Assembly (NCBI RefSeq): GCF_010731675.1
Contig: NZ_AP022584.1
Span: 3,968,001 to 4,032,000, forward strand
DNA from: Mycobacterium marseillense
GTDB taxonomy: Bacteria > Actinomycetota > Actinomycetes > Mycobacteriales > Mycobacteriaceae
Direction of reading: 5' to 3'
DNA: 64,000 nt
Part shown: piece after piece, positions 6,893 to 35,989 of the stretch
Numbering within the stretch: position 1 is the stretch's first letter
Layout of the letters: each line of letters starts with the position of its first letter
Program-made: the position numbers and the translations under genes
The notes under the pieces: model-generated
Database searches by the model: none
What the model was told of the DNA's origin: nothing
The model's input: only the letters and a program-made list of their open reading frames with translations

Positions 6893-7762
6893 ATGACCGC
6901 CCAGGACGACCGCGCGCTCACCGAGGACCGGGCGCACGACAATGTGGCCACCATCCAGGACTGGTCCGCGGGCTACGTCGTGCGGCACCCCCTTGCCTCG
7001 CTCAACACCCTCGGCGAGCAGTACATCCTCGCTGTCCGCACGATCGAGTACTGCATGGTCGACCTGTTCACCGGCCGCTTCCAATGGGCGGAGTTCGTGC
7101 GACAGGGCGCGTTCATGGCGGCGACCGCCGTGCTGCCCACGGTCCTGGTGGCGCTGCCGATCGGGGTGACGCTGTCCATCCAGTTCGCGCTGTTGGCCAA
7201 CCAGGTCGGTGCGACCTCCCTCGCGGGCGCCGCCAGTGGGCTTGCCGTGATCCGTCAGGCCGCCTCGCTGGTGGCCGCGGTGCTGATGGCTTCGGCGGTC
7301 GGGTCCGCCATCACCGCGGATCTCGGGTCTCGGACCATGCGCGAGGAAACCGACGCGATGGAGGTCATGGGGGTTTCGGTGATCCGCCGTCTGGTCGTCC
7401 CTCGCTTCGCCGCGGCCATCATGGTCGGCGTCGCGCTGACCGGAATCACCTGTTTCGTCGGCTTTTTGGCCAGCTATCTGTTCAATGTCTACTTCCAGCG
7501 CGGCGCACCGGGCAGTTTCGTGGCGACGTTTTCGTCGTTCGCCACCACGGAGGACATGATCGTCGCGCTGCTCAAGGCCGTGATCTACGGGGCCATCGTC
7601 GCGGTCATCGCCTGCCAGAAAGGGCTTTTCACCAAGGGCGGCCCGGCGGGCGTGGCCAACTCGGTGAATGCGGCGGTGGTGGAATCGATCTTGGTGTTGA
7701 TGATCGTCAACGTCGGAATCAGCCAGTTGTACAACACGCTGTTCCCCCGGACGGGGCTGTGA
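6893..7762 (+). CDS. yrbEA: YrbE-type (MlaE-family) ABC permease A of an mce operon
   Basis: The protein has 289 residues and at least five hydrophobic helices. The MlaE-family coupling motif is visible as REETDAMEVMGV near residue 150, where the permease contacts an MceG-type ATPase. YrbEA and YrbEB are thought to form the inner-membrane permease pair through which lipids taken up by the Mce hexamer pass. It is the first gene of the rightward mce operon; yrbEB starts one base after its stop. No ATPase gene is in the window, as is usual because MceG is encoded elsewhere. Confidence 0.93.
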   Translation: MTAQDDRALTEDRAHDNVATIQDWSAGYVVRHPLASLNTLGEQYILAVRTIEYCMVDLFTGRFQWAEFVRQGAFMAATAVLPTVLVALPIGVTLSIQFALLANQVGATSLAGAASGLAVIRQAASLVAAVLMASAVGSAITADLGSRTMREETDAMEVMGVSVIRRLVVPRFAAAIMVGVALTGITCFVGFLASYLFNVYFQRGAPGSFVATFSSFATTEDMIVALLKAVIYGAIVAVIACQKGLFTKGGPAGVANSVNAAVVESILVLMIVNVGISQLYNTLFPRTGL

Positions 7763-7763
7763 A

Positions 7764-8621
7764 ATGACGGCCTCCGCCTACGTTCCCGCGCTCGCACGAC
7801 CGTTCATCGGTGCATACCGGGTCGCGGCCACGCCCACCATGCGGCTGGGGCACATGCTGGTCTTCTTCGTACGTGCCGTCCTCTCGGTGCCGACCGTGCT
7901 GCGGCAATACCGCACGGAGTTCCTGCGGTTGCTGTCCAACATCGCCTGGGGCAACGGCTCGATCGTGGTCGGCGGCGGCACCGCCGGCGTCGCGGTGGTC
8001 CTCGGGTTTACCGCGGGCGCGCTGGTGGCCGTAGAGGGATACAACTTCCTGAACCTGCTCGGTTTGGGCCCCGCGACCGGCATCATCTCGTCACTGGTCA
8101 ACACCCGCGAACTGGCACCCATCATGGCCTCCCTGGCGTTTGCGATGCAGGCCGGCTGCCGATTCACCGCGCAACTGGGCGCCATGCGCATCGCCGAAGA
8201 GATCGATGCCCTGGAATCCCTGGCGATACGCCCGATCCCGTTCCTGGTCACGACGCGGCTGATGGCCTCCGTCATCGCCGTCATCCCGCTCTACATCGCC
8301 TGCCTGGCGGTCACTTACCTCACCTGCCAGGTGGTCGCCAACATCATCAGCGGCGGATCCATCGGCCCCTACCTGCACTACTTCACCATGATGCTCAGCG
8401 CCAAGGACATCGCTTACTCAGTCCTCAAATGCGTTGTCTTCGTGTGGCTTTCCTCCACCGTGCAGTGCTACTACGGGTTCTACGCAGCGGGCGGCCCCGA
8501 GGGGGTGGGCGTCGCGGCAGGGCATGCCATGCGGGCCAGCATCACCGTCGTGATCATGGTCAACATGCTGCTCACGATGGCGTTGTGGAGCATCGACGCC
8601 GGCGCGAGATTCGGTGGCTGA
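7764..8621 (+). CDS. yrbEB: YrbE-type (MlaE-family) ABC permease B of an mce operon
   Basis: The protein has 285 residues with the same architecture as YrbEA. The coupling motif appears as RIAEEIDALESLAI near residue 140, preceded by the hydrophobic helices around GFTAGALVAVEGYNF and followed by PLYIACLAVTYLTCQ. Its N-terminal 40 residues form the interface helix seen in MlaE proteins. It directly abuts mceA: the TGA at 8619-8621 is followed at once by ATG. It is expected to pair with YrbEA as a heterodimeric lipid permease. Confidence 0.93.
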   Translation: MTASAYVPALARPFIGAYRVAATPTMRLGHMLVFFVRAVLSVPTVLRQYRTEFLRLLSNIAWGNGSIVVGGGTAGVAVVLGFTAGALVAVEGYNFLNLLGLGPATGIISSLVNTRELAPIMASLAFAMQAGCRFTAQLGAMRIAEEIDALESLAIRPIPFLVTTRLMASVIAVIPLYIACLAVTYLTCQVVANIISGGSIGPYLHYFTMMLSAKDIAYSVLKCVVFVWLSSTVQCYYGFYAAGGPEGVGVAAGHAMRASITVVIMVNMLLTMALWSIDAGARFGG

Positions 8622-10190
8622 ATGGCCAATTCGCTAGATTTCGACGGGCGCGGCCCGACCGACCAGCAGCTGGTGGCCCTGGGGGCGGCGGTGCTGCTGA
8701 TCGCGGGGCTGATCACGGGAAGCCTGTTGCTGAAGTCCACCGGGCGGCTCAACGATTACATCCGCGTGGTCGCCGAGCTGACCAACGTCGGCGACGGGCT
8801 GCCGGCACGCTCCGATGTGAAATATCACGGGCTGCTCGTCGGGGCCGTCGACAATGTCGTCCCGGCGGCCTACGGCAAGCCGAACTACGTGCACATCAAC
8901 CTCAAACCCGAATACGCCAAGGACATCCCGAACGCGGTGACCGCGCGCGTGGTACCCAGCAACGTGTTCGCGGTTTCGTCGGTGCAACTCGTCGACGCCG
9001 GACCGAGCCCGAGCATCCGCAACGGGACGCGCATCCCCGAAGACCTCCAGCTTTCCACGGTGATCTTCCAGACCACCATCAGCAAGCTGCGCGACATCCT
9101 GGCCGCGACCGGCCGCGGCCGCGAAGACCATAGCGTCGGCATCCTGGCCGCCGTTGCGGCCGCCACCAATAACCGACGCGGCACCTTGCTCACGGCCGGC
9201 GCGCAGATGACCCGGGTGCTCGACGAGCTCAACGCCATCGTGACCACCGACCCCGGCCCGTCCACGGTCTCCGCGCTGCTGGATGCCACTCGCGGTCTGC
9301 AGGCCACCGCGCCCGACCTCGTCGACGTCTTGCACGACGCGGTCAAACCGATGCAGACGCTGGTCGAAAAGCGCGAGCAATTCCGGTCGCTGGTCACCGG
9401 CTCGCACCACACCTTCGGTGTGAACCGCCAAGCGTTCGACAACCACACCGATCAGCTGATCGAGATGAGCCAGAACCTCACGCCCGCCCTCGGCGTATTC
9501 GCCCTGAACAGCGACAAATTCGTCCCCATCTTCACCAGGCTGAACCGGTTGTCCGACAAGTTCTTTGAAGAAGTGTGGGATCCGGAGATGGACACCGGAA
9601 ACATGCGGGTCAATCTGGCGCTGACCCCGACCTACACCTACACCCGCGCCGATTGCCCGCGCTACGGCCAGTTGCTGGGACCGAGTTGCTTCACCGCCCC
9701 GACCATCGCCGTGCGCCCGGACCTGCCCGAGGTGTTGCTGCCGCAGAACTACCACGCGCCCGCGGATTTGGCGCCGCCCCCGGGCACGCAGTTCGGCCCC
9801 GACGGCAACCTCACCGCGGTGGGCCCGCCGCTGTTCAACCCCAACCCCAGCCTGGAAGACCCCAACCCGCCGTTGCCGTGGTGGCCGTGGCAGATCGGTC
9901 CGACACCCCGCGTCCCGGGGACCGCCGATCCCGACGACGCGCCGCCGCCACCGGCGCCGGGGCCCCCGCCCGCGAGTCCGGCCCCGCCCGGTGCGGCCGC
10001 GCCGGCGGCCTACGGCGGCAACGTCGGACCCGTGGGTAGCCAACACGAACGCGATCAGCTCGGCGTGATCACCGGGCAAGGCCGTCCGGCGTCGGTGGCC
10101 ACGCAACTGCTCCTGGGCCCGGTCGCGCGCGGCGCCGCGGTCTCCCTGAAACCACAGCAACCGCAGCCCGGGGCGGGTGAGCCGAAATGA
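8622..10190 (+). CDS. mceA: MCE-family protein MceA
   Basis: The protein has 522 residues. One N-terminal membrane helix (VALGAAVLLIAGLITGSLLL, about residues 14-33) is followed by the MCE beta-barrel domain (STGRLNDYIRVVAEL to VSSVQLVDAG, about residues 35-125). A long helical part follows that builds the transporter tube, and the C-terminal 110 residues are rich in proline and alanine. It is longer than most MceA proteins, mainly because of that tail. It should form a heterohexamer with MceB-F and carry hydrophobic substrates across the periplasm. It overlaps mceB by ATGA. Confidence 0.93.
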   Translation: MANSLDFDGRGPTDQQLVALGAAVLLIAGLITGSLLLKSTGRLNDYIRVVAELTNVGDGLPARSDVKYHGLLVGAVDNVVPAAYGKPNYVHINLKPEYAKDIPNAVTARVVPSNVFAVSSVQLVDAGPSPSIRNGTRIPEDLQLSTVIFQTTISKLRDILAATGRGREDHSVGILAAVAAATNNRRGTLLTAGAQMTRVLDELNAIVTTDPGPSTVSALLDATRGLQATAPDLVDVLHDAVKPMQTLVEKREQFRSLVTGSHHTFGVNRQAFDNHTDQLIEMSQNLTPALGVFALNSDKFVPIFTRLNRLSDKFFEEVWDPEMDTGNMRVNLALTPTYTYTRADCPRYGQLLGPSCFTAPTIAVRPDLPEVLLPQNYHAPADLAPPPGTQFGPDGNLTAVGPPLFNPNPSLEDPNPPLPWWPWQIGPTPRVPGTADPDDAPPPPAPGPPPASPAPPGAAAPAAYGGNVGPVGSQHERDQLGVITGQGRPASVATQLLLGPVARGAAVSLKPQQPQPGAGEPK

Positions 10191-11266
10191 AGGTACGCGG
10201 ACCGCTGATCGGGCTGTCGCTGTTCATGGCGATCGCCATCGCGGTGACGTGGATGGTGTACGCCACCCTGCGGCGCGACGTGGCCGGCCCGACGACGCCG
10301 TACTCGGCGATGTTCACCGACGTGTACGGGTTACGCATCGGCGACGACGTCCGCATGGCCGGCGTGCGGGTGGGCCGCGTCGAAAACATCGAACTGGCCG
10401 GGAAACTGGCGAAGGTCTCGTTCATCGTCGAGAACGATCAGCGCCTGTACGGCAACACCGTCGCATCGGTGACCTACCAGAACATCATCGGACAGCGCTA
10501 TCTGGGACTGTCGCTCGGTGAAACCGGCGACAGGGGAATGCTTTCGGCAGGCAGCGTCATCCCGGTGCAGCAGACCGACCCCTCGTTTGACGTCGGCAAG
10601 TTGCTCAACGGTTTCGAGCCACTGTTCACCCTGCTCAACCCCAAAGACGCCGACGACCTGACCAAGGGGGTTCTGCAGTCGTTGCAAGGCGATCAGGCTT
10701 CCATCCCGCTGCTGGTGCAGCAGACGTCGACGATCACCCGCACGCTGTCGGCGCGCGACCAGTCGTTGGGCGACCTCATCAGCAATCTCACCAAAGTCAC
10801 CGACACCGTCGCGCGGCAAAACGACGACCTCGACCACGCGCTCGATCAAACCCGTTCCGCGGTCGCCAATTTCGACGCCCGCCGCCCGGCGTTGCAGGAT
10901 TCGGTCGGTTCGATCGCCCGGGTGACCCGCCGACTCGCGGCGATCGCCGACGACGTCGACCCTGCATTGAACCAATTGATCACCCGGGAGCCGGGATTCA
11001 GCAAGCACCTGGCCGGCATCGAACCCCAGCTGGCGTTCACCGGCGACAACCTGCCCCTGTTGCTCAAGGGTTTCGCGCGGGCGGTCGGTGAGGGCACCTA
11101 CGGCAACGCCTACGCCTGCGATCTGAACGCGACGGGCTTCTTCCCCGGACTCAACGACATCACCACGTTCATCGTGAACGCGGCCACGCCCGGCAACGCG
11201 TATCCGATCACCACGAAGAACATGGGGTGGCACACCCCGCGATGCAGGAACATGGCCAATGGCTGA
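10187..11266 (+). CDS. mceB: MCE-family protein MceB
   Basis: The protein has 359 residues. It has an N-terminal membrane anchor (LIGLSLFMAIAIAVTWMVYA), an MCE domain with the typical YSAMFTDVYGLRIGDDVRMAGVRVG and NIIGQRYLGLSLG strands, then a coiled helical region and a short C-terminal domain ending with the cysteine-bearing HTPRCRNMANG. It overlaps its neighbours at both ends (four bases with mceA, eight with mceC), which indicates translational coupling. It is the second subunit of the Mce heterohexamer. Confidence 0.93.
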   Translation: MKVRGPLIGLSLFMAIAIAVTWMVYATLRRDVAGPTTPYSAMFTDVYGLRIGDDVRMAGVRVGRVENIELAGKLAKVSFIVENDQRLYGNTVASVTYQNIIGQRYLGLSLGETGDRGMLSAGSVIPVQQTDPSFDVGKLLNGFEPLFTLLNPKDADDLTKGVLQSLQGDQASIPLLVQQTSTITRTLSARDQSLGDLISNLTKVTDTVARQNDDLDHALDQTRSAVANFDARRPALQDSVGSIARVTRRLAAIADDVDPALNQLITREPGFSKHLAGIEPQLAFTGDNLPLLLKGFARAVGEGTYGNAYACDLNATGFFPGLNDITTFIVNAATPGNAYPITTKNMGWHTPRCRNMANG

Positions 11267-12305
11267 CGCATTGAGAACCCGATGGCTGCGGCGGCGACCG
11301 CTCGAGTCGTACAACAGGACCTGGCTCGGGCTGGCCGGCCTCGCGGTGGTCGTGGTTCTGGTCGCGGTGTCGCTCGGAATCAAGCTTCTCGGCGTCGGCT
11401 ACACCCATTACACCGCCGAATTCCTGCAGGCGGCCACGCTGCGGCCCGGAAACCCCATCACCATCGCGGGCATCGAGGTCGGGCACGTCACCAGCATGAA
11501 ACTCGACGGCGATCACGTCGAAGCCGGCTTGAGCGTGCGGGACAATGTCCCGCTCGGCAAGGACACCCGAGCGGTCATCAAGGTCATGACCATCCTCGGG
11601 TCGCGCTATCTCGAGCTGGTGCCCGACGGCCCGGGTTCGATTCCGGCCAAGACGATCACCCTGTCCCACACCTCGGTGCCCTACGACCTGCAGTCGCTGC
11701 TCGAAGACGCCACCACCACATTCGAGCAAGTCGATTCCGATCAGTTCGCGCAATCACTCGCCGTGCTGGGCAAGCAACTCGGCGGGGTGCCGCCGCTCGT
11801 TCCGCAGGCCGTCGCGAACCTGCAGACGCTGTCGACGATCACCGCCGACCGCCGAGGACAGCTCGGCACGCTCCTGAAAAGCACCCAGCGCGTGGTCAAT
11901 ACGCTGCGACGCCAGCAGACCAACATCGGACATCTGATGGACCAGGGGCAGGACCTGCTCGGCCACCTGGTGGCCCGCCAGGCCACCTTCCACGCCATGT
12001 TCGCGGCGCTCACCGAGCTCGTCGATCAGCTCGACAAGGTCATCGTCACCAACCGGCCCATGCTGGACGAACTGTTCACCAACCTGCACGACCTGACCAA
12101 CATGATCGGCCAGCACGACGACTTGGTGCGAAACATTCTGCAGGTGGCCCCAGTGACACTGCGGGGCTTGACCAACGCCACCGGCTATGGGCCGGTCGTC
12201 GAATTCAACCTGCCCAACGGGCTCGCCATCGACTCGTGGATGTGCGCCATCAGCGGCCGCGCAAAGGAATTCAAGATGATCCAGTACTTCAAGGACTGCA
12301 AATGA
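11259..12305 (+). CDS. mceC: MCE-family protein MceC
   Basis: The protein has 348 residues with an N-terminal anchor (LAGLAVVVVLVAVSLGIKLLG), an MCE domain containing TLRPGNPITIAGIEVGHVTS and the conserved TILGSRYLELVP strand, then a long helical tube region. A frame of 711 residues covering this gene and mceD exists in another phase, but only its mceD part is real. The stop overlaps the mceD start by ATGA. It is the third subunit of the Mce complex. Confidence 0.93.
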   Translation: MADALRTRWLRRRPLESYNRTWLGLAGLAVVVVLVAVSLGIKLLGVGYTHYTAEFLQAATLRPGNPITIAGIEVGHVTSMKLDGDHVEAGLSVRDNVPLGKDTRAVIKVMTILGSRYLELVPDGPGSIPAKTITLSHTSVPYDLQSLLEDATTTFEQVDSDQFAQSLAVLGKQLGGVPPLVPQAVANLQTLSTITADRRGQLGTLLKSTQRVVNTLRRQQTNIGHLMDQGQDLLGHLVARQATFHAMFAALTELVDQLDKVIVTNRPMLDELFTNLHDLTNMIGQHDDLVRNILQVAPVTLRGLTNATGYGPVVEFNLPNGLAIDSWMCAISGRAKEFKMIQYFKDCK

Positions 12306-13417
12306 TTTCTGGTAGGCGCAAGCTCATCGCCGTGGCGGCAGTGGCCGCTTCGGCGGCCGCCGTGGCCATCGGCGTGGTCGGCCACTATGTCAAGTCGCGC
12401 CTGGACACGATGACCGTGATCGCTCAATTCGACAGCGCCGCCGGTCTTTACGAAGGCAACGTGGTCGCGGTGCTCGGCATGCCCGTGGGGAAGGTCAGCA
12501 AGGTCACGTCCAAAGGCAGCTACGTCGAGGCCGAGCTGACGGTGGACAAGAAGGTCAAGATCCCCGCCGCGGCCCGGGCGGTCACCATCACCACCTCGAT
12601 CCTCACCGACCGGCAGGTCGAACTGACGCCGCCGTACCGGAACGGCCCGGTGCTCAAGAACCACGACACCATCGGACTGACCAGGACGAAGACTCCCGTC
12701 GCGTTCGACCGCGTGCTCGACATGCTCGACAAGGTCTCCAAATCGCTCAAGGGCGACGGGAAAGGCGGCGGCCCGGTCGCCGACCTGAGCGACGCGGCGG
12801 TCGCCATCACCGACGGGAACGGCAAGAAGATCCTGGCCGCTCTCGACGAGCTGTCCAAAGCGCTGCGCCTCAGCTCCGAGCGAGGAGTCACCACCCGCGA
12901 GCAACTGACCACCATCGTCACCGACCTCAGCTCGATCACCGAGGCGGCGGCGCGCAACGACGCCAAGGTGCGCGAATTCGGTTCCACCACACGCCAGCTC
13001 AGCCAGACCTTGGCCGACGAGAGGTTCGGCACCGGCGCCACCGGGCGCACCATCAACCGCATCCTCGAGGAAGTCACCACGCTGATCGAGAACAATCGCG
13101 ACAACCTCAAGCAGGCGGTCCGCAACGGCGACACGGTAGCCAAGACGCTCGTCGAGGATCAGCGCGTCGTGGCCGAGTTGCTCGACGTCCTGCCGCTGAC
13201 GCTGGAAAACCTCTACAACACCGTCGATCAGAACAACGGCGCGATCCGCGTGCACGGCCTGCTCGACAAGGCGCTCACCGACAGTCAGTCCGCGAAGGAA
13301 CTCTGCAACCTGATGCATCTGCGTCAATTGGGTTGCAGCACTGGGACACTGCAGGACTACGGTCCCGACTTCGGTCTGACCTACATTCTCGACGGCCTCT
13401 CGGCGATGGGACAGTAG
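12302..13417 (+). CDS. mceD: MCE-family protein MceD
   Basis: The protein has 371 residues, starting at the ATG that overlaps the mceC stop. The frame is open far upstream, but the segment before 12302 is a shadow of mceC. It has an N-terminal anchor (LIAVAAVAASAAAVAIGVVG), an MCE domain with FDSAAGLYEGNVVAVLGMPVG and SILTDRQVELTP, a charged helical region, and a C-terminal part with two cysteines (ELCNL and QLGCS). It is the fourth subunit of the Mce complex. Confidence 0.93.
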   Translation: MISGRRKLIAVAAVAASAAAVAIGVVGHYVKSRLDTMTVIAQFDSAAGLYEGNVVAVLGMPVGKVSKVTSKGSYVEAELTVDKKVKIPAAARAVTITTSILTDRQVELTPPYRNGPVLKNHDTIGLTRTKTPVAFDRVLDMLDKVSKSLKGDGKGGGPVADLSDAAVAITDGNGKKILAALDELSKALRLSSERGVTTREQLTTIVTDLSSITEAAARNDAKVREFGSTTRQLSQTLADERFGTGATGRTINRILEEVTTLIENNRDNLKQAVRNGDTVAKTLVEDQRVVAELLDVLPLTLENLYNTVDQNNGAIRVHGLLDKALTDSQSAKELCNLMHLRQLGCSTGTLQDYGPDFGLTYILDGLSAMGQ

Positions 13418-13419
13418 CG

Positions 13420-14652
13420 ATGAACTGGGGCAAGCACAAGGCACTGGCGGTGGCGCTGAGCACCGTCATGGTCAGTTCGGGCTGCGCCACCAACGGGCTG
13501 GCCAGCCTGCCGTTGCCGGCGCCGGGCATGGGCGGCGGCGGATATCTACTTACCGCCGTGTTCTCCAACGCCCTGAATCTGCCCGCCCACGCGAAGGTTA
13601 AACTCGCCGGCGCCGACGTCGGCCAACTCGAAAAGATGGTCGCGCGAAACTACACCGCGGTGACCACGCTGCGCATCATGGACGGCGTGCGCATCCCCGT
13701 CGGCAGCACCGCGGAGCTACGGTCCGCGACACCGCTGGGCGACGTGTTCGTCGCGATCAAGCCACCGACCCCGACGGATCCTCATGCCCCGCTGCTCAAG
13801 GGCGGCGAGACCATCGGGTTGCCGGCCACCCGCGCCGCCGCCACCGTCGAGAGCGTGCTCAGCTCGGCCGCGCTGCTCGTCAACGGGGGAGCGGTCCGCA
13901 ACTTCACCAATATCGTCAACGGCGCCGGCAAGGCAACCGGCGACCAGGGACGCGCGTTCGGCGACCTGATCAACCGGACCAATCTGCTGCTGGGCAAGCT
14001 CAATGCCCGCTCCGAGCAGATCGACGCGGCGGTGACCGAGACCGCGGGCCTGGCCGACCGGCTGGATGAAAAGAACCAAGCAATCAGCGAGGTCTTACAG
14101 GCCGTCGGGCCGGCGACGAACGTGTTGTCCAGCAACGCCGACGAAATAGCCGACGTCGTCGACGAACTCGGCGCCACGACCCGCCAGCTTTCCAAGTTCC
14201 CGTCCATCGCCGGTACCGACAAGACGGGCCGCAGCGTCATCAAGGACGCGAACACCATCGCCGGCGCATGGAACGACGTGGTGCTGAGCCCGGACACCAG
14301 CCTCGCCGGCCTGAACCGGCTGATCCCGCCCTTCGTGAAAACCACCTCCAGCGACGCTATTTCGGTACGCGGCAGCTTCGATCGCCTGGTCATGGGATCG
14401 CGACCCGGCACCGGTGCGGAGACCGGGGGATTCAAGGGCGATCCGGCGTTCCACGGACCCATGCGCCGCGACTGGAACTACATGATCGGCTCGATCAAGT
14501 ACGTGCTGTGGCGACTGCAGGAACGCGTCGTGGGCCGCGGCCCGCAAACGCCGATGGGCCAAACCCCTTGGACGCCGAGCGGTCCGCCGCTCCCACCGGC
14601 GCCCGCGGGAGAAGCGCCCCCGGATCCCATGAGTCCGGAGCCGCCGCGGTGA
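13420..14652 (+). CDS. mceE: MCE-family lipoprotein MceE
   Basis: The protein has 410 residues. The ATG at 13420 was chosen because it follows the mceD stop directly and gives a lipoprotein signal (MNWGKHKALAVALSTVMV then SSGC with Cys at residue 21). MceE subunits (LprK type) are lipoproteins. The MCE domain follows (FSNALNLPAHAKVKLAGADVG), then the helical tube. A proline-rich tail overlaps the next gene by GTGA. The lipobox is weaker than usual (VSSGC), so lipidation is likely but not certain. Confidence 0.92.
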   Translation: MNWGKHKALAVALSTVMVSSGCATNGLASLPLPAPGMGGGGYLLTAVFSNALNLPAHAKVKLAGADVGQLEKMVARNYTAVTTLRIMDGVRIPVGSTAELRSATPLGDVFVAIKPPTPTDPHAPLLKGGETIGLPATRAAATVESVLSSAALLVNGGAVRNFTNIVNGAGKATGDQGRAFGDLINRTNLLLGKLNARSEQIDAAVTETAGLADRLDEKNQAISEVLQAVGPATNVLSSNADEIADVVDELGATTRQLSKFPSIAGTDKTGRSVIKDANTIAGAWNDVVLSPDTSLAGLNRLIPPFVKTTSSDAISVRGSFDRLVMGSRPGTGAETGGFKGDPAFHGPMRRDWNYMIGSIKYVLWRLQERVVGRGPQTPMGQTPWTPSGPPLPPAPAGEAPPDPMSPEPPR

Positions 14653-15899
14653 TCGAGACGCTCGCACGCTTCATCGTCACCGCGGTCAAAACCGGTCACC
14701 GGCAGCGCGCCTGGCTGTCCGGCATCGCGCTGGTGCTCACACTCGTGGTCGGCCTGGCCTACCTGGCGATCGGTGCGCTGCGCATCAACCCGTTCGACTC
14801 CACCTACCAGGTCACGATCCGGCTTCCCGAATCCGGTGGCCTGCTGGCCAACCAGGATGTGTCGGTTCGCGGGATCCGGGTCGGGCGCATCCAGTCGCTG
14901 CGACCCACGCCTACCGGCATCGAGGTGATCGCGAACATCAACGCGAATACCAAGATTCCCGCCGCCAGCCCGGTGCGCGTATCCGGGCTCTCGCCCGCGG
15001 GCGAGCAGTACATCGACTTCGAGCCCGCCTCCAACAGCGGTCCTTTTCTGTCGAACGGCAGCGTGATCGGCCCCCAGCGCACCACGACGCCGATCCCGCT
15101 GTCCCAGGTCCTGGCCGACGCCGACGGGATGCTCGCCCAAACCGACCCGAAGAAGCTCGAAATCGTCAAGCGGGAACTGAGTTTGAGCAAGGAGGGCCCG
15201 CAAAAGCTCACCGACATCATCGACGGTTCGACGTTCCTGCTGTCGACGATGGACCCGGTGCTGCCGCAGACGGTCAGCATGCTCAAGACCAGCCGCGTCG
15301 TATTGACCACCCTGTCGGACAAGAATGCCGGGCTCGCGGTGGCTGCGCGCAATGTCGGAGACCTCATGACCGGCGTGAACAAGATGGACCGCGGCTATCG
15401 CAAATTCGTCGATCAGACGCCGAACGCGATGTCCTCGGTGGACAACCTGTTCGACGACAACTCCGACACCATGGTCGGACTGCTGGCCAACCTGGTGACC
15501 ACCGCACGGATCATCTATGTCCGGGTTCCGGCGTTGAACGCGGTCTTCCCGAACTATCGCGGGTCCACGCTCGAGGCCCTGATGACCACCATGCACGAGC
15601 ACGGGCTGTGGGCGACCGCCGACATCTACCCGCGCTACACCTGTGACTACGGCACCCCGCGCCGGCCGTCGTCGTCCGCGGACTATCCCGAACCGTTCCT
15701 GTACACCTACTGCCGCGACGACGACCCGCAGGTGTTGATCCGCGGCGCGAAGAACGCGCCCCGACCGGGCGGCGACGACACGGCCGGGCCGCCCGCCGGC
15801 GCCGATCTGGGCCAAACCGCCGATCCAACACCCAAGGGGAGGTTCACCATTCCGACGCCCTACGGCGGACCGGTACTGCCGATCGAGCCACCTCACTGA
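14649..15899 (+). CDS. mceF: MCE-family protein MceF
   Basis: The protein has 416 residues from the GTG at 14649 that overlaps the mceE stop. It has an N-terminal anchor (GIALVLTLVVGLAYLAIGAL), an MCE domain with RLPESGGLLANQDVSVRGIRVG and SPAGEQYIDFEP, a long helical segment, and a proline-rich C-terminus. It is the last MCE subunit and completes an A-F set. The Mce-associated gene follows after 33 bases that include a good ribosome-binding site (AAGGAG). Confidence 0.93.
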   Translation: MIETLARFIVTAVKTGHRQRAWLSGIALVLTLVVGLAYLAIGALRINPFDSTYQVTIRLPESGGLLANQDVSVRGIRVGRIQSLRPTPTGIEVIANINANTKIPAASPVRVSGLSPAGEQYIDFEPASNSGPFLSNGSVIGPQRTTTPIPLSQVLADADGMLAQTDPKKLEIVKRELSLSKEGPQKLTDIIDGSTFLLSTMDPVLPQTVSMLKTSRVVLTTLSDKNAGLAVAARNVGDLMTGVNKMDRGYRKFVDQTPNAMSSVDNLFDDNSDTMVGLLANLVTTARIIYVRVPALNAVFPNYRGSTLEALMTTMHEHGLWATADIYPRYTCDYGTPRRPSSSADYPEPFLYTYCRDDDPQVLIRGAKNAPRPGGDDTAGPPAGADLGQTADPTPKGRFTIPTPYGGPVLPIEPPH

Positions 15900-30317: not shown

Positions 30318-31535
30318 TCAGGCGCCCGAGGGCGCCGAGGGCGTGAATCTGACCGGCATGCGCTCCAGGCCGCTGACGAAGTTGGCGGGCCGCAGCGGCA
30401 GCGGGTCGCCGGAGGCCAGCTCCATGTCGGGCAGGCGTTTCAACAGACGCTCGAGCATCATCGAGAGCTCTAGACGCGCCAGCTGATTGCCCAGGCAGAA
30501 ATGGGTTCCGAAGCCGAATGCCAGGTGGTTGTTGGGGTAGCGGTCGATCCGGAAGCTCTCGGGGTCCCCGAACACGGCTTCGTCGAAGTTCGCCGATTCG
30601 AAGAGCAAGATCATCTTCTCGCCCCGCGCGAGCTGGGTGCCGTGGAACTCGAGATCGGCGGTCAGGGTGCGGGCCATGTTCTTGACCGGCGCGGTCCACC
30701 TCAGCATCTCTTCGATCGCATTGGGAAGCAGCGCCACGTCGTCGACCAGTTGCCGGTGCTGGTGCGGGTGGCGCAGGATCTGCGCGGTGCCGCCGGACAG
30801 CGTGTGCCGGGTGGTCTCGTCGCCGCCGATGAGCAACAACAACACCTCGGTCACGATCTCGTGGTCGGCCAGCTTCTCGCCGTCGACCTCCGCGTGCACC
30901 AGCACGCTGACCAAGTCATCGGTCGGCTCGGCCTTGCGCGCCGCGATCATGCTCGTCATGTATTCGGTGTAGGCGGCGAAGGCGTCGATGGAGACCTGGA
31001 AGTCCTCTTGCGCGGTCGTGCTGCTCAGCAGCGTGACCATGTCGTCGGACCAGCGCAAAAACATCTGCCGCTCTTCGGGGAGCACCCCGAGCATGTCGCC
31101 GATGACCGCCATGGGCAGGGGCGCGGCAAGGTCCCAGACGAAGTCGCACTCGCCACGCTCGCAGACGTTGTCGATCAAGGCATCGCACAGGGCGCCGATC
31201 GAGGGCTCCCGGTCCTTGACGCGTTTCCGGGTGAAGCCCGCGTTGACGAGTTTGCGCCGCAACAGGTGAGCGGGGTCATCCATCGCGATCATCATGGGCG
31301 GCGCGTCCTGGTCCGGCCGGATGCCACCCGCGTTGGAGAACAGCTCGGGCGCCCGCTCGGCGTCGATCACCGCCTGATACGTCGCGGCGGCGGCCAACCC
31401 GTTGCGGTCCCGAAAGACCGGCTCGTTCTCGCGCATCCACCGATAGACCGGCCGCGAGTCGCCCGCGTAGAAGGCGCCGTCGGTCAGATCGACATCGGGC
31501 CGTAGCTGGCGTGGCGTATCAACAGTGCTTGGCAT
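30318..31535 (-). CDS. cyp142: cytochrome P450, CYP142 family
   Basis: The protein has 405 residues. P450 features are the I-helix LLIGGDETTRH, the ExxR of IEEMLRW and the haem loop FGFGTHFCLGNQ with Cys at about residue 347. Blocks such as YRWMRENEPVFRDRNG, ELFSNAGGIRPDQ, HLLRRKLVNAGFTRKRVKD and VKNMARTL are almost those I remember for M. tuberculosis CYP142A1. That enzyme hydroxylates the side-chain terminal carbon of cholesterol/cholest-4-en-3-one. It is the last gene of a leftward operon with AveC-like, MoxR-type and VWA proteins, after a 79-base gap, not in the usual cholesterol locus order. It may be a second CYP142 copy or a relocated orthologue. Confidence 0.82.
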   Translation of the reverse strand: MPSTVDTPRQLRPDVDLTDGAFYAGDSRPVYRWMRENEPVFRDRNGLAAAATYQAVIDAERAPELFSNAGGIRPDQDAPPMMIAMDDPAHLLRRKLVNAGFTRKRVKDREPSIGALCDALIDNVCERGECDFVWDLAAPLPMAVIGDMLGVLPEERQMFLRWSDDMVTLLSSTTAQEDFQVSIDAFAAYTEYMTSMIAARKAEPTDDLVSVLVHAEVDGEKLADHEIVTEVLLLLIGGDETTRHTLSGGTAQILRHPHQHRQLVDDVALLPNAIEEMLRWTAPVKNMARTLTADLEFHGTQLARGEKMILLFESANFDEAVFGDPESFRIDRYPNNHLAFGFGTHFCLGNQLARLELSMMLERLLKRLPDMELASGDPLPLRPANFVSGLERMPVRFTPSAPSGA

Positions 31536-31614
31536 GGCTCACCCTTCCCCGAAGCGGGCATGCGCGGTCTTACCGTGGACCTTACAGTAGGCGCTGTGGT
31601 ACGCACCCCACCCC

Positions 31615-33297
31615 TCAGGCCGGTCCCGGCGCGGCGCGCTCGCGTAGCGCCGTCAGGAACAGCTCGTCCATCCGCGGGCTCACCTCGGCCAGCGTCGCGG
31701 CGCTGACGTAGCGCGCGGAGCCGAAGACACGCTCGAGTTCGTCGGCGGCGGTGGTACTCCCGATGGACAGGCACAGGCATGCCACGCCATCGCCGCGGAG
31801 TTCCTCGAGCGCCTTGTTCGCGTCGGCCTCCGCGTAATGACCCTCGTAACCGTCGTCATAGGGGCACCCGTCGGACAGGACGAGGAGCAGCCGGTTGGGC
31901 GTGCCGGCTTCGGCGTTGAGAATCTCTCCCGCACCGCGGATCGCCGCACCGAGGCGCGTATAGCCCGACGGCTCAAGCCGATTGAGCCGCGCTCGTTGCG
32001 GGGCGCCGAAGCGCTGCCCGAACGTCTTGATCGCCGGCAAGTGCACGGCATGCCGTCCGTGGGATCGAAACGCGTAGATGGCCACGCGGTCGCCGAGTTC
32101 CTCCAGGGTCATCGCCACGGTGGCCGCCGCGCGCCGCTGGTGGTCGTGGACCGTGTTTCCCTGTTGGTCGGCGTCGGTGGCCGATCCGGAAGCGTCGAGC
32201 AGAATGAGGACGCCGAGGTTTCGAACGACGTTGCGGCGCTGGGTGTAGACGGCCTCCGTGGCCGAACAGCCGGAGCGCAGGTCGATGAGGAGGTCGACGA
32301 GTGCCTCGATGTCGATTTCGTCACCGTCGGTGCGCGCGCGTAAGAGCCTGGGGCCGAGGCCGACGCGTGCCAACCGCCGTCGTAGCTCGTCGTCGTGCGA
32401 CACGTGCGCGGCCGAGATCTGCGTGGGCCCGGTGAGCGGAAAATCGATCACGCGGCACCAATCCGCCCGATAGCGGTTGTTGAAGACGTCCCACTCCGGA
32501 TGGAGTGCACCGCCGACTCCCCACGCCGCGCCGGGCCGTTCGCCGACGAAATTGATGCGCGTCGGAAGCGGGCGGGCCGACGCGCCGAGCGTCCGTGCCG
32601 GCCGGATCGAGCGGGCCTGAAACTCCCCGCCCGACGAGTCGTCGCCACGCGATGAGCCCTCGCCCAACAGTTTTCGCAGAAAATCCGCCAGGGCCCGTGA
32701 ACTGAACAGCGGGTTCTCGAACAGCTTGAGGATCTTGCTGTCCTCCGAAGCGGCGTCGTCCTCGTCGTCGGGCTCCCGCGCGGCGACGAGCTCGATCGCC
32801 GCCCGCAGATCCGCATCCGTGGCCGGCGCGGCACCTCTGACCGACGACGCCAACAGTTGCGCCGGCCGGATGACACCGAACCACATCGGGGGGTCCGCGA
32901 TTGGGATTGTGCCCCTGGCCATTTCGAGCGAGTCATCCGCGGACGCGGTGCGGGGCGCACCGTCGGGGCGAAGCGCCGCCGCTAGCGCAACGGTGGGGGC
33001 GAGGTCCGCGAGCACCCGGTGGCCTTCCAGCGCCAGGTAGCGGCGCGCGACCTTCGGGCGCGCGCGCAGTCGCTTCACCAGCCGCCGATCCAGGCTGCCC
33101 GCGCCGAGCAGCGCGCCCTGGACCAGTACCTGCCGGCGCTGCCGCTCGGCGGAGCCGCCCGCCGGGACGAAGATGGCGTCGCCGTCCGTGTAGGCGTCCT
33201 GGCCGGCAGCGGCTTCGGCGACGTCGACGGCCCGACCGGCCAGGTAGGTGGCAAGGAGCCGATACCGTTGCGGACCAACGGGTTCCGCAACCATCAC
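31615..33297 (-). CDS. VWA-domain protein, NorD/CbbO-like
   Basis: The protein has 560 residues. The C-terminal 200 residues form a von Willebrand factor A domain with the MIDAS motif DASGS (368-372), the Thr of SGYTRLGAAIRG and the Asp of VLSDG. The N-terminal 350 residues are helical and include a glutamate/aspartate-rich patch (AAREPDDEDDAASEDS). NorD and CbbO proteins act with an AAA+ partner to insert metal into, or remodel, a target enzyme. The AAA+ gene directly upstream overlaps its start (ATGTGATG, with GTG at 33297 or ATG at 33294), so the two are translated together. The target enzyme is not known. Confidence 0.85.
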   Translation of the reverse strand: MMVAEPVGPQRYRLLATYLAGRAVDVAEAAAGQDAYTDGDAIFVPAGGSAERQRRQVLVQGALLGAGSLDRRLVKRLRARPKVARRYLALEGHRVLADLAPTVALAAALRPDGAPRTASADDSLEMARGTIPIADPPMWFGVIRPAQLLASSVRGAAPATDADLRAAIELVAAREPDDEDDAASEDSKILKLFENPLFSSRALADFLRKLLGEGSSRGDDSSGGEFQARSIRPARTLGASARPLPTRINFVGERPGAAWGVGGALHPEWDVFNNRYRADWCRVIDFPLTGPTQISAAHVSHDDELRRRLARVGLGPRLLRARTDGDEIDIEALVDLLIDLRSGCSATEAVYTQRRNVVRNLGVLILLDASGSATDADQQGNTVHDHQRRAAATVAMTLEELGDRVAIYAFRSHGRHAVHLPAIKTFGQRFGAPQRARLNRLEPSGYTRLGAAIRGAGEILNAEAGTPNRLLLVLSDGCPYDDGYEGHYAEADANKALEELRGDGVACLCLSIGSTTAADELERVFGSARYVSAATLAEVSPRMDELFLTALRERAAPGPA

Positions 33298-34112
33298 ATC
33301 GCGGGCAGCAGGGAATCGACGAGCTCGCCGAGCGCAGCGACGACCTCGCGATCATCGGACAGGATCCGGACCACCGCCGCCTGGACGGCGCTGCGCAGGT
33401 TGAGCCCCTCGGCGACCAGGCTGCCGGCCAGGATCAACATCCGGGTGGACGACACCTCGCGCACCGGCGAACCATCGAGCTTTCGGATCGCGCTGCCGAC
33501 CGTGACCAGAGCGCGCGCCGTCGCGGCGTCGACTCCCGCCTCGTGGGCAACGATTTCCGTCTCGGCCTCGACCGAGGGGAAATCGAGTTCGATGGCCACG
33601 AACCGCTGCCGGGTCGACTCCTTGATGTTCTTCAGCACGCTTTGGTAGCCGGGGTTGTAGGAAATGACGAGCTGAAAACCCGGCGCCGCAGGCACTGTCG
33701 TGCCCAGACGGTCGACCAGAAGCTCGCGGCGATGATCGGCGAGCGGATGGATGACCACCGTGGTGTCCTGGCGCGCCTCGACTATTTCGTCCAGGTAGCA
33801 GATCGCGCCCTCGCGGACGGCCCGGGTCAACGGGCCGTCCACCCAGACGGTTTCGCCCCCTTTGAGAAGGAAACGCCCGACCAGGTCCGCCGACGTCATG
33901 TCTTCGTGCGCCGCGACGGTGATCAGATCGCGGCCGAGCGCGTGCGCCATCGCCTCCACGAACCGCGTCTTGCCGCATCCCGTCGGCCCTTTCAGCAACA
34001 CCGGCAAGCCGCGGCCGGCCGCCGCGCGAAAGACGGCCACCTCGTCGCCGGCCGGCCGGTAGAACGGCGCCTCCGACGCCGGGCGAACGGCGGGCTGGGA
34101 ATTCGTCAGCAC
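33294..34112 (-). CDS. MoxR-type AAA+ ATPase, CbbQ/NirQ/NorQ family
   Basis: The protein has 272 residues. It has Walker A GPTGCGKT (42-49), Walker B AICYLDE (103-109), sensor 1 in LVISYNPGYQ and an arginine finger region ESTRQRF. The size and the C-terminal ILSDDREVVAALGELVDSLL are those of CbbQ/NorQ proteins, which form hexamers that power activation of Rubisco, nitric-oxide reductase or other metalloenzymes together with a VWA partner. Its ATG follows the stop of the AveC-like gene without a gap, and it overlaps the VWA gene. No nor or cbb structural gene is nearby. Confidence 0.9.
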   Translation of the reverse strand: MLTNSQPAVRPASEAPFYRPAGDEVAVFRAAAGRGLPVLLKGPTGCGKTRFVEAMAHALGRDLITVAAHEDMTSADLVGRFLLKGGETVWVDGPLTRAVREGAICYLDEIVEARQDTTVVIHPLADHRRELLVDRLGTTVPAAPGFQLVISYNPGYQSVLKNIKESTRQRFVAIELDFPSVEAETEIVAHEAGVDAATARALVTVGSAIRKLDGSPVREVSSTRMLILAGSLVAEGLNLRSAVQAAVVRILSDDREVVAALGELVDSLLPAM

Positions 34113-35285
34113 CTAGCGTCCCCGTTGGAAGGGGACGACATCCGGCAGGTGGCCGCCGGGCGGCAGGACCAGATGACCGTGCACGTCGATGTACCCGGAG
34201 CGCTTGGTGGGTATCGGCAGAGCGGGATTCGGGCATGGCGTGTCCGTCCCGTCACCACAGATGCCGCCGTTGAAGTACGAACGCTTCTGGTGGTCCTGGG
34301 GCCACGGGTCAGAGTGCATTCCGATCCATTGCGCGGGCAAGTTGTAGAAGACGAAGAAGCAGGCGCTGACCCCGGCGAAGATCGCCAGGAACCGGGTGAA
34401 CTGCTGTCGCGCGAATCCGCCTCGCACGTGGTCCAATCCGCGCTCGACGACGGTGCGCCCACGATCGTCGGTGAAGAAACGCAGACAGCACAGCGCCGCC
34501 TGCACACCACCCCACATCAGGCCTTCGTAGAGCGGCCATTGGTAGTAGGTGTCGGCATTGATCGACACGGACCTGATGGCACCGGGGTACGTGTAGAAGC
34601 CGATCGGTAGCAGGACCAGACCCTCCATGACGAAGTCGAAGACAAACGCCAGGGCGTACGTGATGAGGACCAGGCGAAGATTGCTGATGTTCGGCCAGCG
34701 CGTCTTGACTTTGCGCATGATCCAGCACCCGACGACCGTGATCAGCAGGACGCCGTATGCGTAGCCCGGTGTGTTGGTCAAGAGGGGCTCGGCCACCTGA
34801 CGGCCCGGTTCCTCCGGGGAGACCCAACCCGGAATGTTCGACGACCAGGAGCCCCGGTTGAACAGCCAGGTGTTGTAGGTGCACCACGTGTTGAAGTAGT
34901 TCAGCAACGGATCCTGGAAGAACATCAGGCCCATCGACGCCACGAGCATGCCGTCCAACGTGATTCGGCGCTCGCGCCGCCACGGCCTGATGAAGAACCA
35001 CCACACGACGACCGGCAGCGCGACCCACAGCACGACCGCGTTCGCGATGAGCGGCACCTTCATGTACATCGGTGGTTCGCTCGGTCCCGCGGGCACCCGC
35101 TCGAAATAGGGGCCGGTGATCCACCGGACCCACACGTAGAGCTGGAGGGCCAGCAGCGCGCCGCCGGCGGCGGCCCAGATCTTGATCGGCCTGACCGGCG
35201 ACGGGGCCTGCGCGCCCAGTTCGCCCTGGCCGGGCAGTGTCTCGGTGACAGACGAGGCTTGGTTCCGGTTAGCGAGATCGCTCAT
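34113..35285 (-). CDS. AveC-family (spirocyclase-like) membrane protein
   Basis: The protein has 390 residues and about six to seven membrane helices, starting after a soluble N-terminus of 30 residues. It has family-typical aromatic and acidic loops: DPLLNYFNTWCTYNTW near residue 125, FVFDFVMEGLVLLPIGFYTY near residue 215, and YYQWPLYEGLMWGG. This matches the AveC group; in avermectin biosynthesis AveC is a spirocyclase/dehydratase. Mycobacterial members are uncharacterised. It is the first gene of the operon leading to the MoxR ATPase, the VWA protein and the P450, and is divergent from a TetR gene. Confidence 0.75.
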   Translation of the reverse strand: MSDLANRNQASSVTETLPGQGELGAQAPSPVRPIKIWAAAGGALLALQLYVWVRWITGPYFERVPAGPSEPPMYMKVPLIANAVVLWVALPVVVWWFFIRPWRRERRITLDGMLVASMGLMFFQDPLLNYFNTWCTYNTWLFNRGSWSSNIPGWVSPEEPGRQVAEPLLTNTPGYAYGVLLITVVGCWIMRKVKTRWPNISNLRLVLITYALAFVFDFVMEGLVLLPIGFYTYPGAIRSVSINADTYYQWPLYEGLMWGGVQAALCCLRFFTDDRGRTVVERGLDHVRGGFARQQFTRFLAIFAGVSACFFVFYNLPAQWIGMHSDPWPQDHQKRSYFNGGICGDGTDTPCPNPALPIPTKRSGYIDVHGHLVLPPGGHLPDVVPFQRGR

Positions 35286-35326
35286 GACGCTGGTGTCCTC
35301 CCGGTCGGCATTCCGCTCCGAGCAAT

Positions 35327-35340
35327 ATACTCACCAGTAT
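35327..35340. promoter_or_regulatory. inverted repeat ATACT-CACC-AGTAT, candidate TetR operator
   Basis: A perfect 5+4+5 inverted repeat lies in the 101-bp region between the divergent AveC-like and TetR genes, 42 bases from the former and 47 from the latter. It overlaps a TATACT (35326-35331) that could serve as a -10. This is the expected place for autorepression by the TetR protein and control of the four-gene operon. Confidence 0.55.
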
Positions 35341-35386
35341 CTGAGAAACGGAATAGCTTCTCGCAAGCTCTGGCAGAATCTGGCGC

Positions 35387-35989
35387 ATGGTTGAGCGTTG
35401 GACGCGAGAGCGCCGCCTCGAGCACACCCGCTCGCTCCTGATCGATGCCGCCGAGGAGGTTTTCGGCGAGAAGGGGTTCGTCGCCGCGACGCTCGACGAC
35501 ATTGCCCACGCCGCCGGCTACACGAAAGGCGCCATCTACAAACACTTTTCAACGAAGGAAGACCTGTTCCTGGCGGTCAGTGATCGCTATTGGCGCCGGT
35601 ACTTCGTCAACTTCACCGAAGTGATGGCGCCGGCGACGCAGGTCGGCGCACGCGAACTCGACGAGATCGCCAAACGCTGGAGCCAGCTCAGCCGGGATCG
35701 CGGGGCCGAGCACGCCGCGCTAGGTCACGAGTTCATGCTGTACCTGCTGCGCAACCCCGAGGCGCGGGAACGCGTGGCCGCCAAGAGATCCGAGGCCGTC
35801 GAGGCGCTGGCAAAGTTCATCGTGGCGGGCATCGACCGGCTCGGCGGGACGTTGCTGATTCCCGCGTCGACCTTCGCCCAGGTGCTCGTCGCCACCAGCG
35901 ACTCGGTCGTGTTGGGCAGCCAACTCGACGACGTGGACCTGTTCCGACCGATCGTCGAGATGTACGTGTCGGTGATCAAGCTGCCCTGA
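35387..35989 (+). CDS. TetR-family transcriptional regulator
   Basis: The protein has 200 residues. The N-terminal DNA-binding domain has TRSLLIDAAEEVFGEKGF and the helix-turn-helix LDDIAHAAGYTKGAIYKHFSTKEDLFLAV (about residues 31-60). The C-terminal domain is typical of TetR_C with no recognisable ligand signature. It is divergent from the AveC-MoxR-VWA-P450 operon with a palindrome in between, so it probably represses that operon and itself. Confidence 0.9.
   Translation: MVERWTRERRLEHTRSLLIDAAEEVFGEKGFVAATLDDIAHAAGYTKGAIYKHFSTKEDLFLAVSDRYWRRYFVNFTEVMAPATQVGARELDEIAKRWSQLSRDRGAEHAALGHEFMLYLLRNPEARERVAAKRSEAVEALAKFIVAGIDRLGGTLLIPASTFAQVLVATSDSVVLGSQLDDVDLFRPIVEMYVSVIKLP

What the first reader, a model, noticed from the sequence alone, without database searches (positions are those of the whole stretch)
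30318..35989. TetR-controlled AveC / MoxR-AAA+ / VWA / CYP142-type P450 operon: a possible metalloenzyme-activation system acting on sterol oxidation
Seen: four leftward genes with 0-bp and overlapping junctions for the first three and a 79-bp gap before the P450, plus a divergent TetR with an ATACT-CACC-AGTAT palindrome between. Known: CbbQ/NorQ AAA+ proteins work with CbbO/NorD VWA proteins to activate or load metal into a specific enzyme, and AveC is a membrane spirocyclase/dehydratase. No nor or cbb target is present. Inference: the AAA+/VWA pair services the AveC-like protein or the P450, in a lipid or sterol-like pathway. I know of no described function for this combination.
Basis: partly seen in the sequence, partly recalled or inferred. 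Interest (0 to 1): 0.72.

Follow-up and report, generated by a model that had tools for sequence, protein, structure and literature searches.

The report
AAA+ motor dedicated to AveC-like enzyme
A two-part molecular motor best known for loading iron into a bacterial nitric-oxide enzyme appears, in mycobacteria and their relatives, to serve a different membrane protein of lipid metabolism instead, so the set of jobs known for this motor would grow.

Summary
The genes, coordinates, junctions and palindrome are real, but the four-gene operon with the P450 is not conserved. The conserved unit is TetR <-> AveC-like > NorQ-type AAA+ > NorD-type VWA: 54 other same-genus loci were examined and AveC lies beside the AAA+ (or its pieces) in 53; the unit also occurs in Nocardia and Actinomadura. 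The CYP142 copy follows it only here and in the nearest relatives seen. The pair is NorQ/NorD type by domain, H2i motif, MIDAS and finger stretch. In 394 actinomycete genomes, 42 of 66 strong CbbQ_C AAA+ loci lie by an AveC-like gene (41 within 3.5 kb, either strand), 22 by another multi-pass membrane protein, 2 by neither. In the two proteobacterial nor loci found, NorB holds the place AveC has here. In Nocardia the operon runs on into mce lipid-importer genes. Best reading: an ATP-driven maturation or activation machine for the AveC-like membrane enzyme. Against strict dependence, some genomes keep AveC with no NorQ/NorD found anywhere. Metal loading is unproven: AveC has conserved carboxylates but no conserved histidine.

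The parts
35387..35989 (+). TetR-family regulator, divergent from the operon
   Evidence: Pfam TetR_N; divergent TetR next to AveC in 51 of 54 same-genus loci by script rule; in Actinomadura darangshiensis it lies on the other side of the operon
35327..35340 (.). Palindrome ATACT-CACC-AGTAT, likely TetR operator
   Evidence: <=2 mismatches in 57 of 60 intergenic regions vs 46 of 1200 shuffles; binding by TetR is inferred
34113..35285 (-). AveC-like polytopic membrane protein, proposed client of the AAA+/VWA pair
   Evidence: PF17198 343 bits; low-confidence model with long helices; D125, N129, E166, D217, E221, E254, D273, E281 invariant in 79 aligned relatives, D274 nearly so
33294..34112 (-). 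NorQ/CbbQ-type MoxR AAA+ ATPase
   Evidence: AAA_5 and CbbQ_C; PDB NorQ 9qh4 E=5.3e-99; Walker A and the H2i motif GRXLL/IXXXXT
31615..33297 (-). NorD-type VWA protein with MIDAS and finger stretch
   Evidence: PDB NorD 9qh6 E=6.5e-34, aligned 116-528; MIDAS DASGS, YTRLG, SDG
30318..31535 (-). CYP142-type P450, second such gene in the genome; recent neighbour, not part of the conserved unit
   Evidence: CYP142-type structures at 633-670 bits; beside the VWA in 1 of 54 same-genus loci and in L259-L261

Best explanation
The locus is a TetR-controlled client-plus-chaperone operon. SHOWN by sequence: the AAA+ and VWA proteins are of NorQ and NorD type, and the AveC-like membrane protein holds, in the operon, the place NorB has in nor operons (client, then Q, then D), with tight or overlapping junctions. 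INFERRED: the NorQ-like hexamer, gripping the NorD-like finger in its pore, twists the NorD-like protein, which docks by its MIDAS on a conserved acidic cytoplasmic loop of the AveC-like protein (D273, D274, E281, at the inner end of helix 252-270). This pries the helix bundle open so that the enzyme can receive a cofactor (perhaps a metal held by the carboxylates D125, D217, E221, E254 and by N129) or be freed of a bound lipid. The enzyme then makes an acid-base type change in a lipid or polyketide-like substrate. The CYP142 gene is a recent addition in one species cluster.
For: NorQ type: CbbQ_C domain; best PDB hits are NorQ; H2i motif in 52 of 53 AAA+ proteins of at least 200 aa best matched by the window's (one of them from L130) and in 20 of 20 type-2 ones. 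NorD type: PDB NorD hits whose alignment covers the finger stretch and MIDAS. Linkage in 54 fetched type-1 loci: an AAA+ gene or piece beside VWA in 54 (broken in L091 and L098); AveC beside AAA+ in 51 by script rule, plus L098 and L064 (cut by contig end), i.e. 53. 46 of 54 AAA+/VWA junctions overlap by 4 bp; 50 of 51 AveC/AAA+ gaps are -38 to +5 bp. A diverged type-2 locus keeps VWA, AAA+, a periplasmic-binding-like gene, AveC, P450 and AldDH in 19 of 20 fetched. Class survey: of 66 strong CbbQ_C loci, 41 lie within 3.5 kb of AveC_like, 1 within 9 kb, 22 beside a multi-pass protein, 2 by neither. Co-occurrence in 148 same-genus genomes: both 103, AveC only 5, VWA only 1, neither 39. The two proteobacterial loci returned are norB-norQ-norD loci. 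In 5 of 6 Nocardia loci the operon runs on into mce genes. NorQD mechanism: PMC13036017 (abstract, sections 8 and 11), PMC9976466 (passages).
Against: AveC persists with no NorQ or NorD found in G042 and G243, and type-1 AveC stands without an adjacent same-strand pair in L158-L161, L163, L164, L166, L168, L170, L172. These keep D125, D217, E221 and E254, so the residues do not mark dependence on the pair. No histidine is conserved, unlike the FeB site. Only 44 of 90 AveC_like hits over cut-off in the class survey lie within 3.5 kb of a strong CbbQ_C. One Nocardia MAG locus (L267) has TetR-AAA+-VWA without AveC; L130 has its AveC about 5 kb off; in L142 and L143 the nearest AveC is on the opposite strand. 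Type-2 VWA proteins mostly have S for T in the YTRLG part of MIDAS (0 of 21 with YTR, 18 with Y[ST]R). The AlphaFold model is poor (pLDDT 61.9) and matched no fold. Co-occurrence counts are not corrected for kinship.
Confidence: 0.6

Rival explanations
1. The AAA+/VWA pair activates the AveC-like enzyme without any metal, as CbbQ/CbbO repair inhibited Rubisco: it strips a tightly bound lipid product or inhibitor from an acid-base membrane enzyme.
For: Conserved AveC residues are carboxylates, Asn, Tyr and Arg, with no histidine. AveC of the avermectin pathway is described as a spirocyclase/dehydratase (PMC6490886 and PMC13303154, passages). The other membrane protein found beside such pairs has relatives that sources name emopamil-binding or EXPERA proteins.
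Against: The best PDB matches are NorQ/NorD (metal insertion); CbbQ comes next. Carboxylate-rich metal sites exist (recalled). The EXPERA label was not confirmed by my Pfam scan (E=2.8).
Confidence: 0.3
2. Shared regulation only: the pair acts on another membrane system of the same regulon, such as an Mce lipid importer or the periplasmic-binding-like protein, not on AveC.
For: mce genes follow in 5 of 6 Nocardia loci; the window has an mce operon about 14 kb from the P450 gene; AveC exists without the pair.
Against: Among 155 loci scanned, mce genes directly follow the pair only in Nocardia (flanks differ in length), whereas AveC adjoins it in 53 of 54 type-1 loci and in type 2.
Confidence: 0.15
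3. The pair activates or loads the CYP142-type P450.
For: Same strand, 79 bp downstream; P450 genes also lie in 19 of 20 type-2 loci and in 9 of 16 type-3 loci.
Against: CYP142 follows in 1 of 54 same-genus type-1 loci and in 3 of 14 named actinobacterial ones, the nearest relatives. A second CYP142-like gene lies elsewhere in the genome.
Confidence: 0.04
4. The pair matures a nitric-oxide reductase encoded elsewhere.
For: It is NorQ/NorD type, and the genome has two NO-reductase genes.
Against: Both match long single-chain NORs (500-540 bits; quinol type by length and recall) far better than cNOR NorB (about 100 bits), and PMC9976466 (passage) states that qNOR needs no added genes for FeB insertion. 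Neither lies near a NorQ locus.
Confidence: 0.04

Closest known systems
norCBQD operon, NorQ/NorD of cytochrome c NO reductase
   Same: AAA+ with CbbQ_C and H2i motif, VWA with MIDAS and finger stretch, gene order membrane client-Q-D
   Different: Client is AveC-like, not NorB; the two NOR-like genes of the genome are not of the cNOR NorB type; no conserved His in the client
CbbQ/CbbO Rubisco activase
   Same: CbbQ is among the PDB hits of the AAA+ (6l1q, 5c3c); VWA partner
   Different: Client here is a membrane protein; Rubisco was not searched for in the genome
AveC of avermectin biosynthesis (PF17198)
   Same: Same Pfam family, 343 bits
   Different: No polyketide synthase among the neighbours scanned; AveC itself was not aligned; no activity known to me for any mycobacterial member
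CYP142 steroid C26-monooxygenases
   Same: Near whole-length match (633-670 bits) to CYP142-type structures
   Different: A second, diverged copy (72% to the other) beside an unrelated operon

Membership tests
NorQ/CbbQ-type MoxR AAA+ | AAA_5 plus CbbQ_C domains | tested here: met
   126 and 88 bits
NorQ/CbbQ-type MoxR AAA+ | Walker A and H2i motif GRXLL/IXXXXT (motif from PMC13036017, section 8) | tested here: met
   Window has GPTGCGKT and GRFLLKGGET; Walker A 53 of 53, H2i 52 of 53
NorQ/CbbQ-type MoxR AAA+ | ATPase-driven remodelling of a client | not testable with these tools
   needs protein work
NorD VWA partner | MIDAS DxSxS-T-D | tested here: met
   Aligned; DxSxS in 53 of 54, YTR[LMIV]G in 52 of 54 type-1 proteins; type-2 proteins mostly have S for T
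NorD VWA partner | Finger region that enters the AAA+ pore | tested here: met
   By sequence only: window DGDEIDIE aligns with DGDELDAE and DGDDLDIE of the two NorD chains, in the stretch PMC13036017 (section 8) gives as finger (403-448 of PdNorD; chain numbering may be offset)
cNOR nor operon | norC/norB beside norQD | tested here: not met
   None of the four COX1-family genes of the genome lies near the window locus; the two NOR-like ones match long single-chain NORs best
AveC-like (PF17198) | Match over the Pfam cut-off | tested here: met
   343 bits, cut-off 26.6
AveC-like (PF17198) | Spirocyclase/dehydratase activity | not testable with these tools
   reported for S. avermitilis AveC (PMC6490886, passage)
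CYP142 P450 | Closest solved relatives are CYP142 | tested here: met
   Six hits at E<=1e-150: three named P450 142, two steroid C26-monooxygenase, one recalled as CYP142A2

The most novel reading that the evidence does not exclude
In Actinomycetes the NorQ/NorD machine has been re-deployed as a dedicated ATP-driven activator of lipid-modifying membrane enzymes of at least two families (AveC-like, and a 245-aa family some of whose relatives are named emopamil-binding proteins), working on carboxylate, acid-base active sites rather than on a nitric-oxide reductase.
Probability: 0.35. Interest if true: 0.78.

Novelty: new variant of a known kind. Interest (0 to 1): 0.62.

Why it matters
The well-studied clients of NorQ/CbbQ-class motors that I know of are few (cNOR, Rubisco; recalled). 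A third client class, found beside 42 of 66 such motors sampled in 394 actinomycete genomes, with a fourth candidate beside 22 more, would show what makes a membrane enzyme need such a motor, would give an entry to AveC-like proteins (no solved relative by sequence), and would separate metal insertion from general bundle opening. It also corrects the idea that the P450 is the target.
Full report
OBSERVATION. On the minus strand AveC-like (34113-35285) abuts AAA+ (33294-34112), which overlaps VWA (31615-33297) by 4 bp; 79 bp separate VWA from the P450 (30318-31535); TetR (35387-35989) diverges. Pfam supports each name, and PDB sequence searches support P450, AAA+ and VWA; for AveC-like no PDB chain matched. 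The window lies at 3.97-4.03 Mb of a 5.5-Mb genome in two contigs; the closest named relatives found are Mycobacterium.

CONSERVED UNIT. The VWA protein was searched in 148 same-genus genomes: 104 match at 1e-30. By my reading of that list 56 have a close (type-1, at least 56% identical) copy. I fetched 54 of these loci; not fetched were the window's own and G047, whose copy starts at a contig end. An AAA+ gene or piece adjoins VWA in 54 of 54 (a fragment in L091, two frames in L098). AveC adjoins AAA+ in 51 by script rule; L098 and L064 (contig end) also have it, and L091 has lost it. TetR diverges in 51 by the same rule, and is present in L098 too. AAA+/VWA overlap by 4 bp in 46 of 54, and 50 of 51 AveC/AAA+ gaps lie between -38 and +5 bp. 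CYP142 follows VWA in one of the 54 (L057). In the named genome collection 16 loci came back, two of them proteobacterial. Of the 14 actinobacterial ones, 11 show TetR, AveC, AAA+ and VWA together (Mycobacterium, Mycolicibacter, Mycolicibacterium, Nocardia, Actinomadura); two are cut by contig ends (L261, L266); L267, also near a contig end, has TetR next to AAA+ without AveC.

OPERATOR. 57 of 60 AveC/TetR intergenic regions (window and tandem copies included) hold ATACTNNNNAGTAT with at most two mismatches, against 46 of 1200 shuffles. In Actinomadura the TetR gene has moved to the other end of the operon yet is kept.

SECOND AND THIRD PAIRS. The genome has three strong CbbQ_C AAA+ genes. The second locus (L013) reads VWA, AAA+, a periplasmic-binding-like protein, AveC-like, P450, aldehyde dehydrogenase, thiolase. 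I fetched 20 further loci of the lower-identity VWA matches: 19 keep VWA, AAA+, binding protein, AveC, P450 and AldDH; the other, L130, has its AveC about 5 kb away. The third locus (L014) lies between two related multi-pass membrane proteins of about 245 aa, with a 143-aa one-helix protein and two P450s; such membrane proteins occur in 82 of 148 genomes. Some relatives are named emopamil-binding or EXPERA proteins by sources, which my Pfam and fold searches did not confirm.

CLASS-WIDE SURVEY. In 394 Actinomycetes genomes (a draw that includes many from the window's own genus), PF17198 hits 40 (37 over cut-off) and CbbQ_C hits 37. CbbQ_C gave 71 rows; I dropped five (G029, G504, G373, G412, G333: over the Pfam cut-off, but E only 1.5e-9 to 4.3e-4, G029 with a stop inside), leaving 66 loci in 32 genomes; 31 of those 32 also have AveC_like over cut-off. 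41 loci lie within 3.5 kb of AveC_like on either strand, 1 within 9 kb, 22 beside the 245-aa-type protein, 2 by neither (those of L091 and L239). Conversely 44 of 90 AveC_like hits over cut-off lie within 3.5 kb of such an AAA+. Many of the others belong to a separate subfamily (AveC3), several of them beside the periplasmic-binding-like gene. In the same genus both genes occur in 103 of 148, AveC alone in 5, VWA alone in 1, neither in 39 (thresholds 1e-30 for VWA, 1e-20 for AveC). None of these counts corrects for kinship.

PARALLEL WITH NOR. The two proteobacterial loci returned (L273, L274) are nor loci with a COX1-family NorB just before NorQ and NorD (L273 starts inside NorB). So the AveC-like gene stands where the membrane client stands in the known system. 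NorQ hallmarks (CbbQ_C, Walker A, H2i) and NorD hallmarks (MIDAS, finger stretch) are met by sequence. In the known system (PMC13036017: abstract, sections 8 and 11; PMC9976466: passages) NorD's finger sits in the NorQ pore and its MIDAS is thought to bind two acidic residues at the cytoplasmic end of a NorB helix that carries iron ligands. By positive-inside reasoning on the helices (my inference, on a weak model), AveC has D273, D274 and E281 in a cytoplasmic loop at the inner end of helix 252-270, whose outer end carries E254; D125, N129, D217 and E221 lie towards the outer face.

EVIDENCE AGAINST A SIMPLE STORY. G042 and G243 have AveC but no NorQ or NorD by search. Ten type-1 AveC genes stand without an adjacent same-strand pair: L158-L161, L163, L164, L166, L168, L170, L172, of which L159 is that of G042 and L168 that of G243. 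They keep D125, N129, D217, E221 and E254; E166 is Ala in the three from family f20. G124 has a remnant of the AAA+; in G511 the AAA+ stays but no VWA lies next to it. On the AveC tree the linkage label needs 14 changes, against 34 in shuffles. So the pair goes with AveC in many lineages but is not needed in all. No conserved histidine argues against an FeB-like site. The AveC model is too poor to test whether the carboxylates cluster.

SUBSTRATE WORLD. In 5 of 6 Nocardia loci (two of one species) the operon runs on into YrbE and Mce genes; the window has its own mce operon about 14 kb from the P450 gene. Type-2 loci carry P450 and aldehyde dehydrogenase, some also acyl-CoA dehydrogenases and, in this genome, a thiolase. 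This points to imported lipids; which lipid is unknown.

VERDICT. A NorQ/NorD-type motor pair tied to AveC-like membrane proteins is well supported as a genetic unit, and the mechanism is inferred. It is a new variant of a known kind. The P450 is incidental.

Noticed in passing
L014:7618-12238 (own genome, 755.6-760.2 kb): Third NorQ/NorD pair between two related multi-pass 245-aa membrane proteins plus a 143-aa one-helix protein; same arrangement in many relatives.
   Followed up: partly
window 6893-15899: An mce operon (MlaE/YrbE and Mce ORFs) with a roughly 2-kb stretch (12305-14268) lacking a long forward ORF; an Mce gene may be broken or missing there.
   Followed up: no
L262, L265, L268, L270, L272: In Nocardia the AveC-AAA+-VWA operon runs on into mce lipid-importer genes.
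   Followed up: partly
L013:9126-10244 and L015:7373-8485: A periplasmic-binding-type protein (Peripla_BP_6), by eye without a signal peptide, sits next to AveC-like genes of two different subfamilies; possibly a cytoplasmic lipid carrier.
   Followed up: no
L277 and L278 (own genome 2.476 and 0.20 Mb): Two long single-chain (quinol-type by length and recall) nitric-oxide reductase genes in one genome.
   Followed up: partly
L058-L061, L063, L066, L070, L075, L077: Two AveC copies, mostly each with its own TetR, beside the AAA+/VWA pair; the copies fall in different clades of the tree.
   Followed up: no
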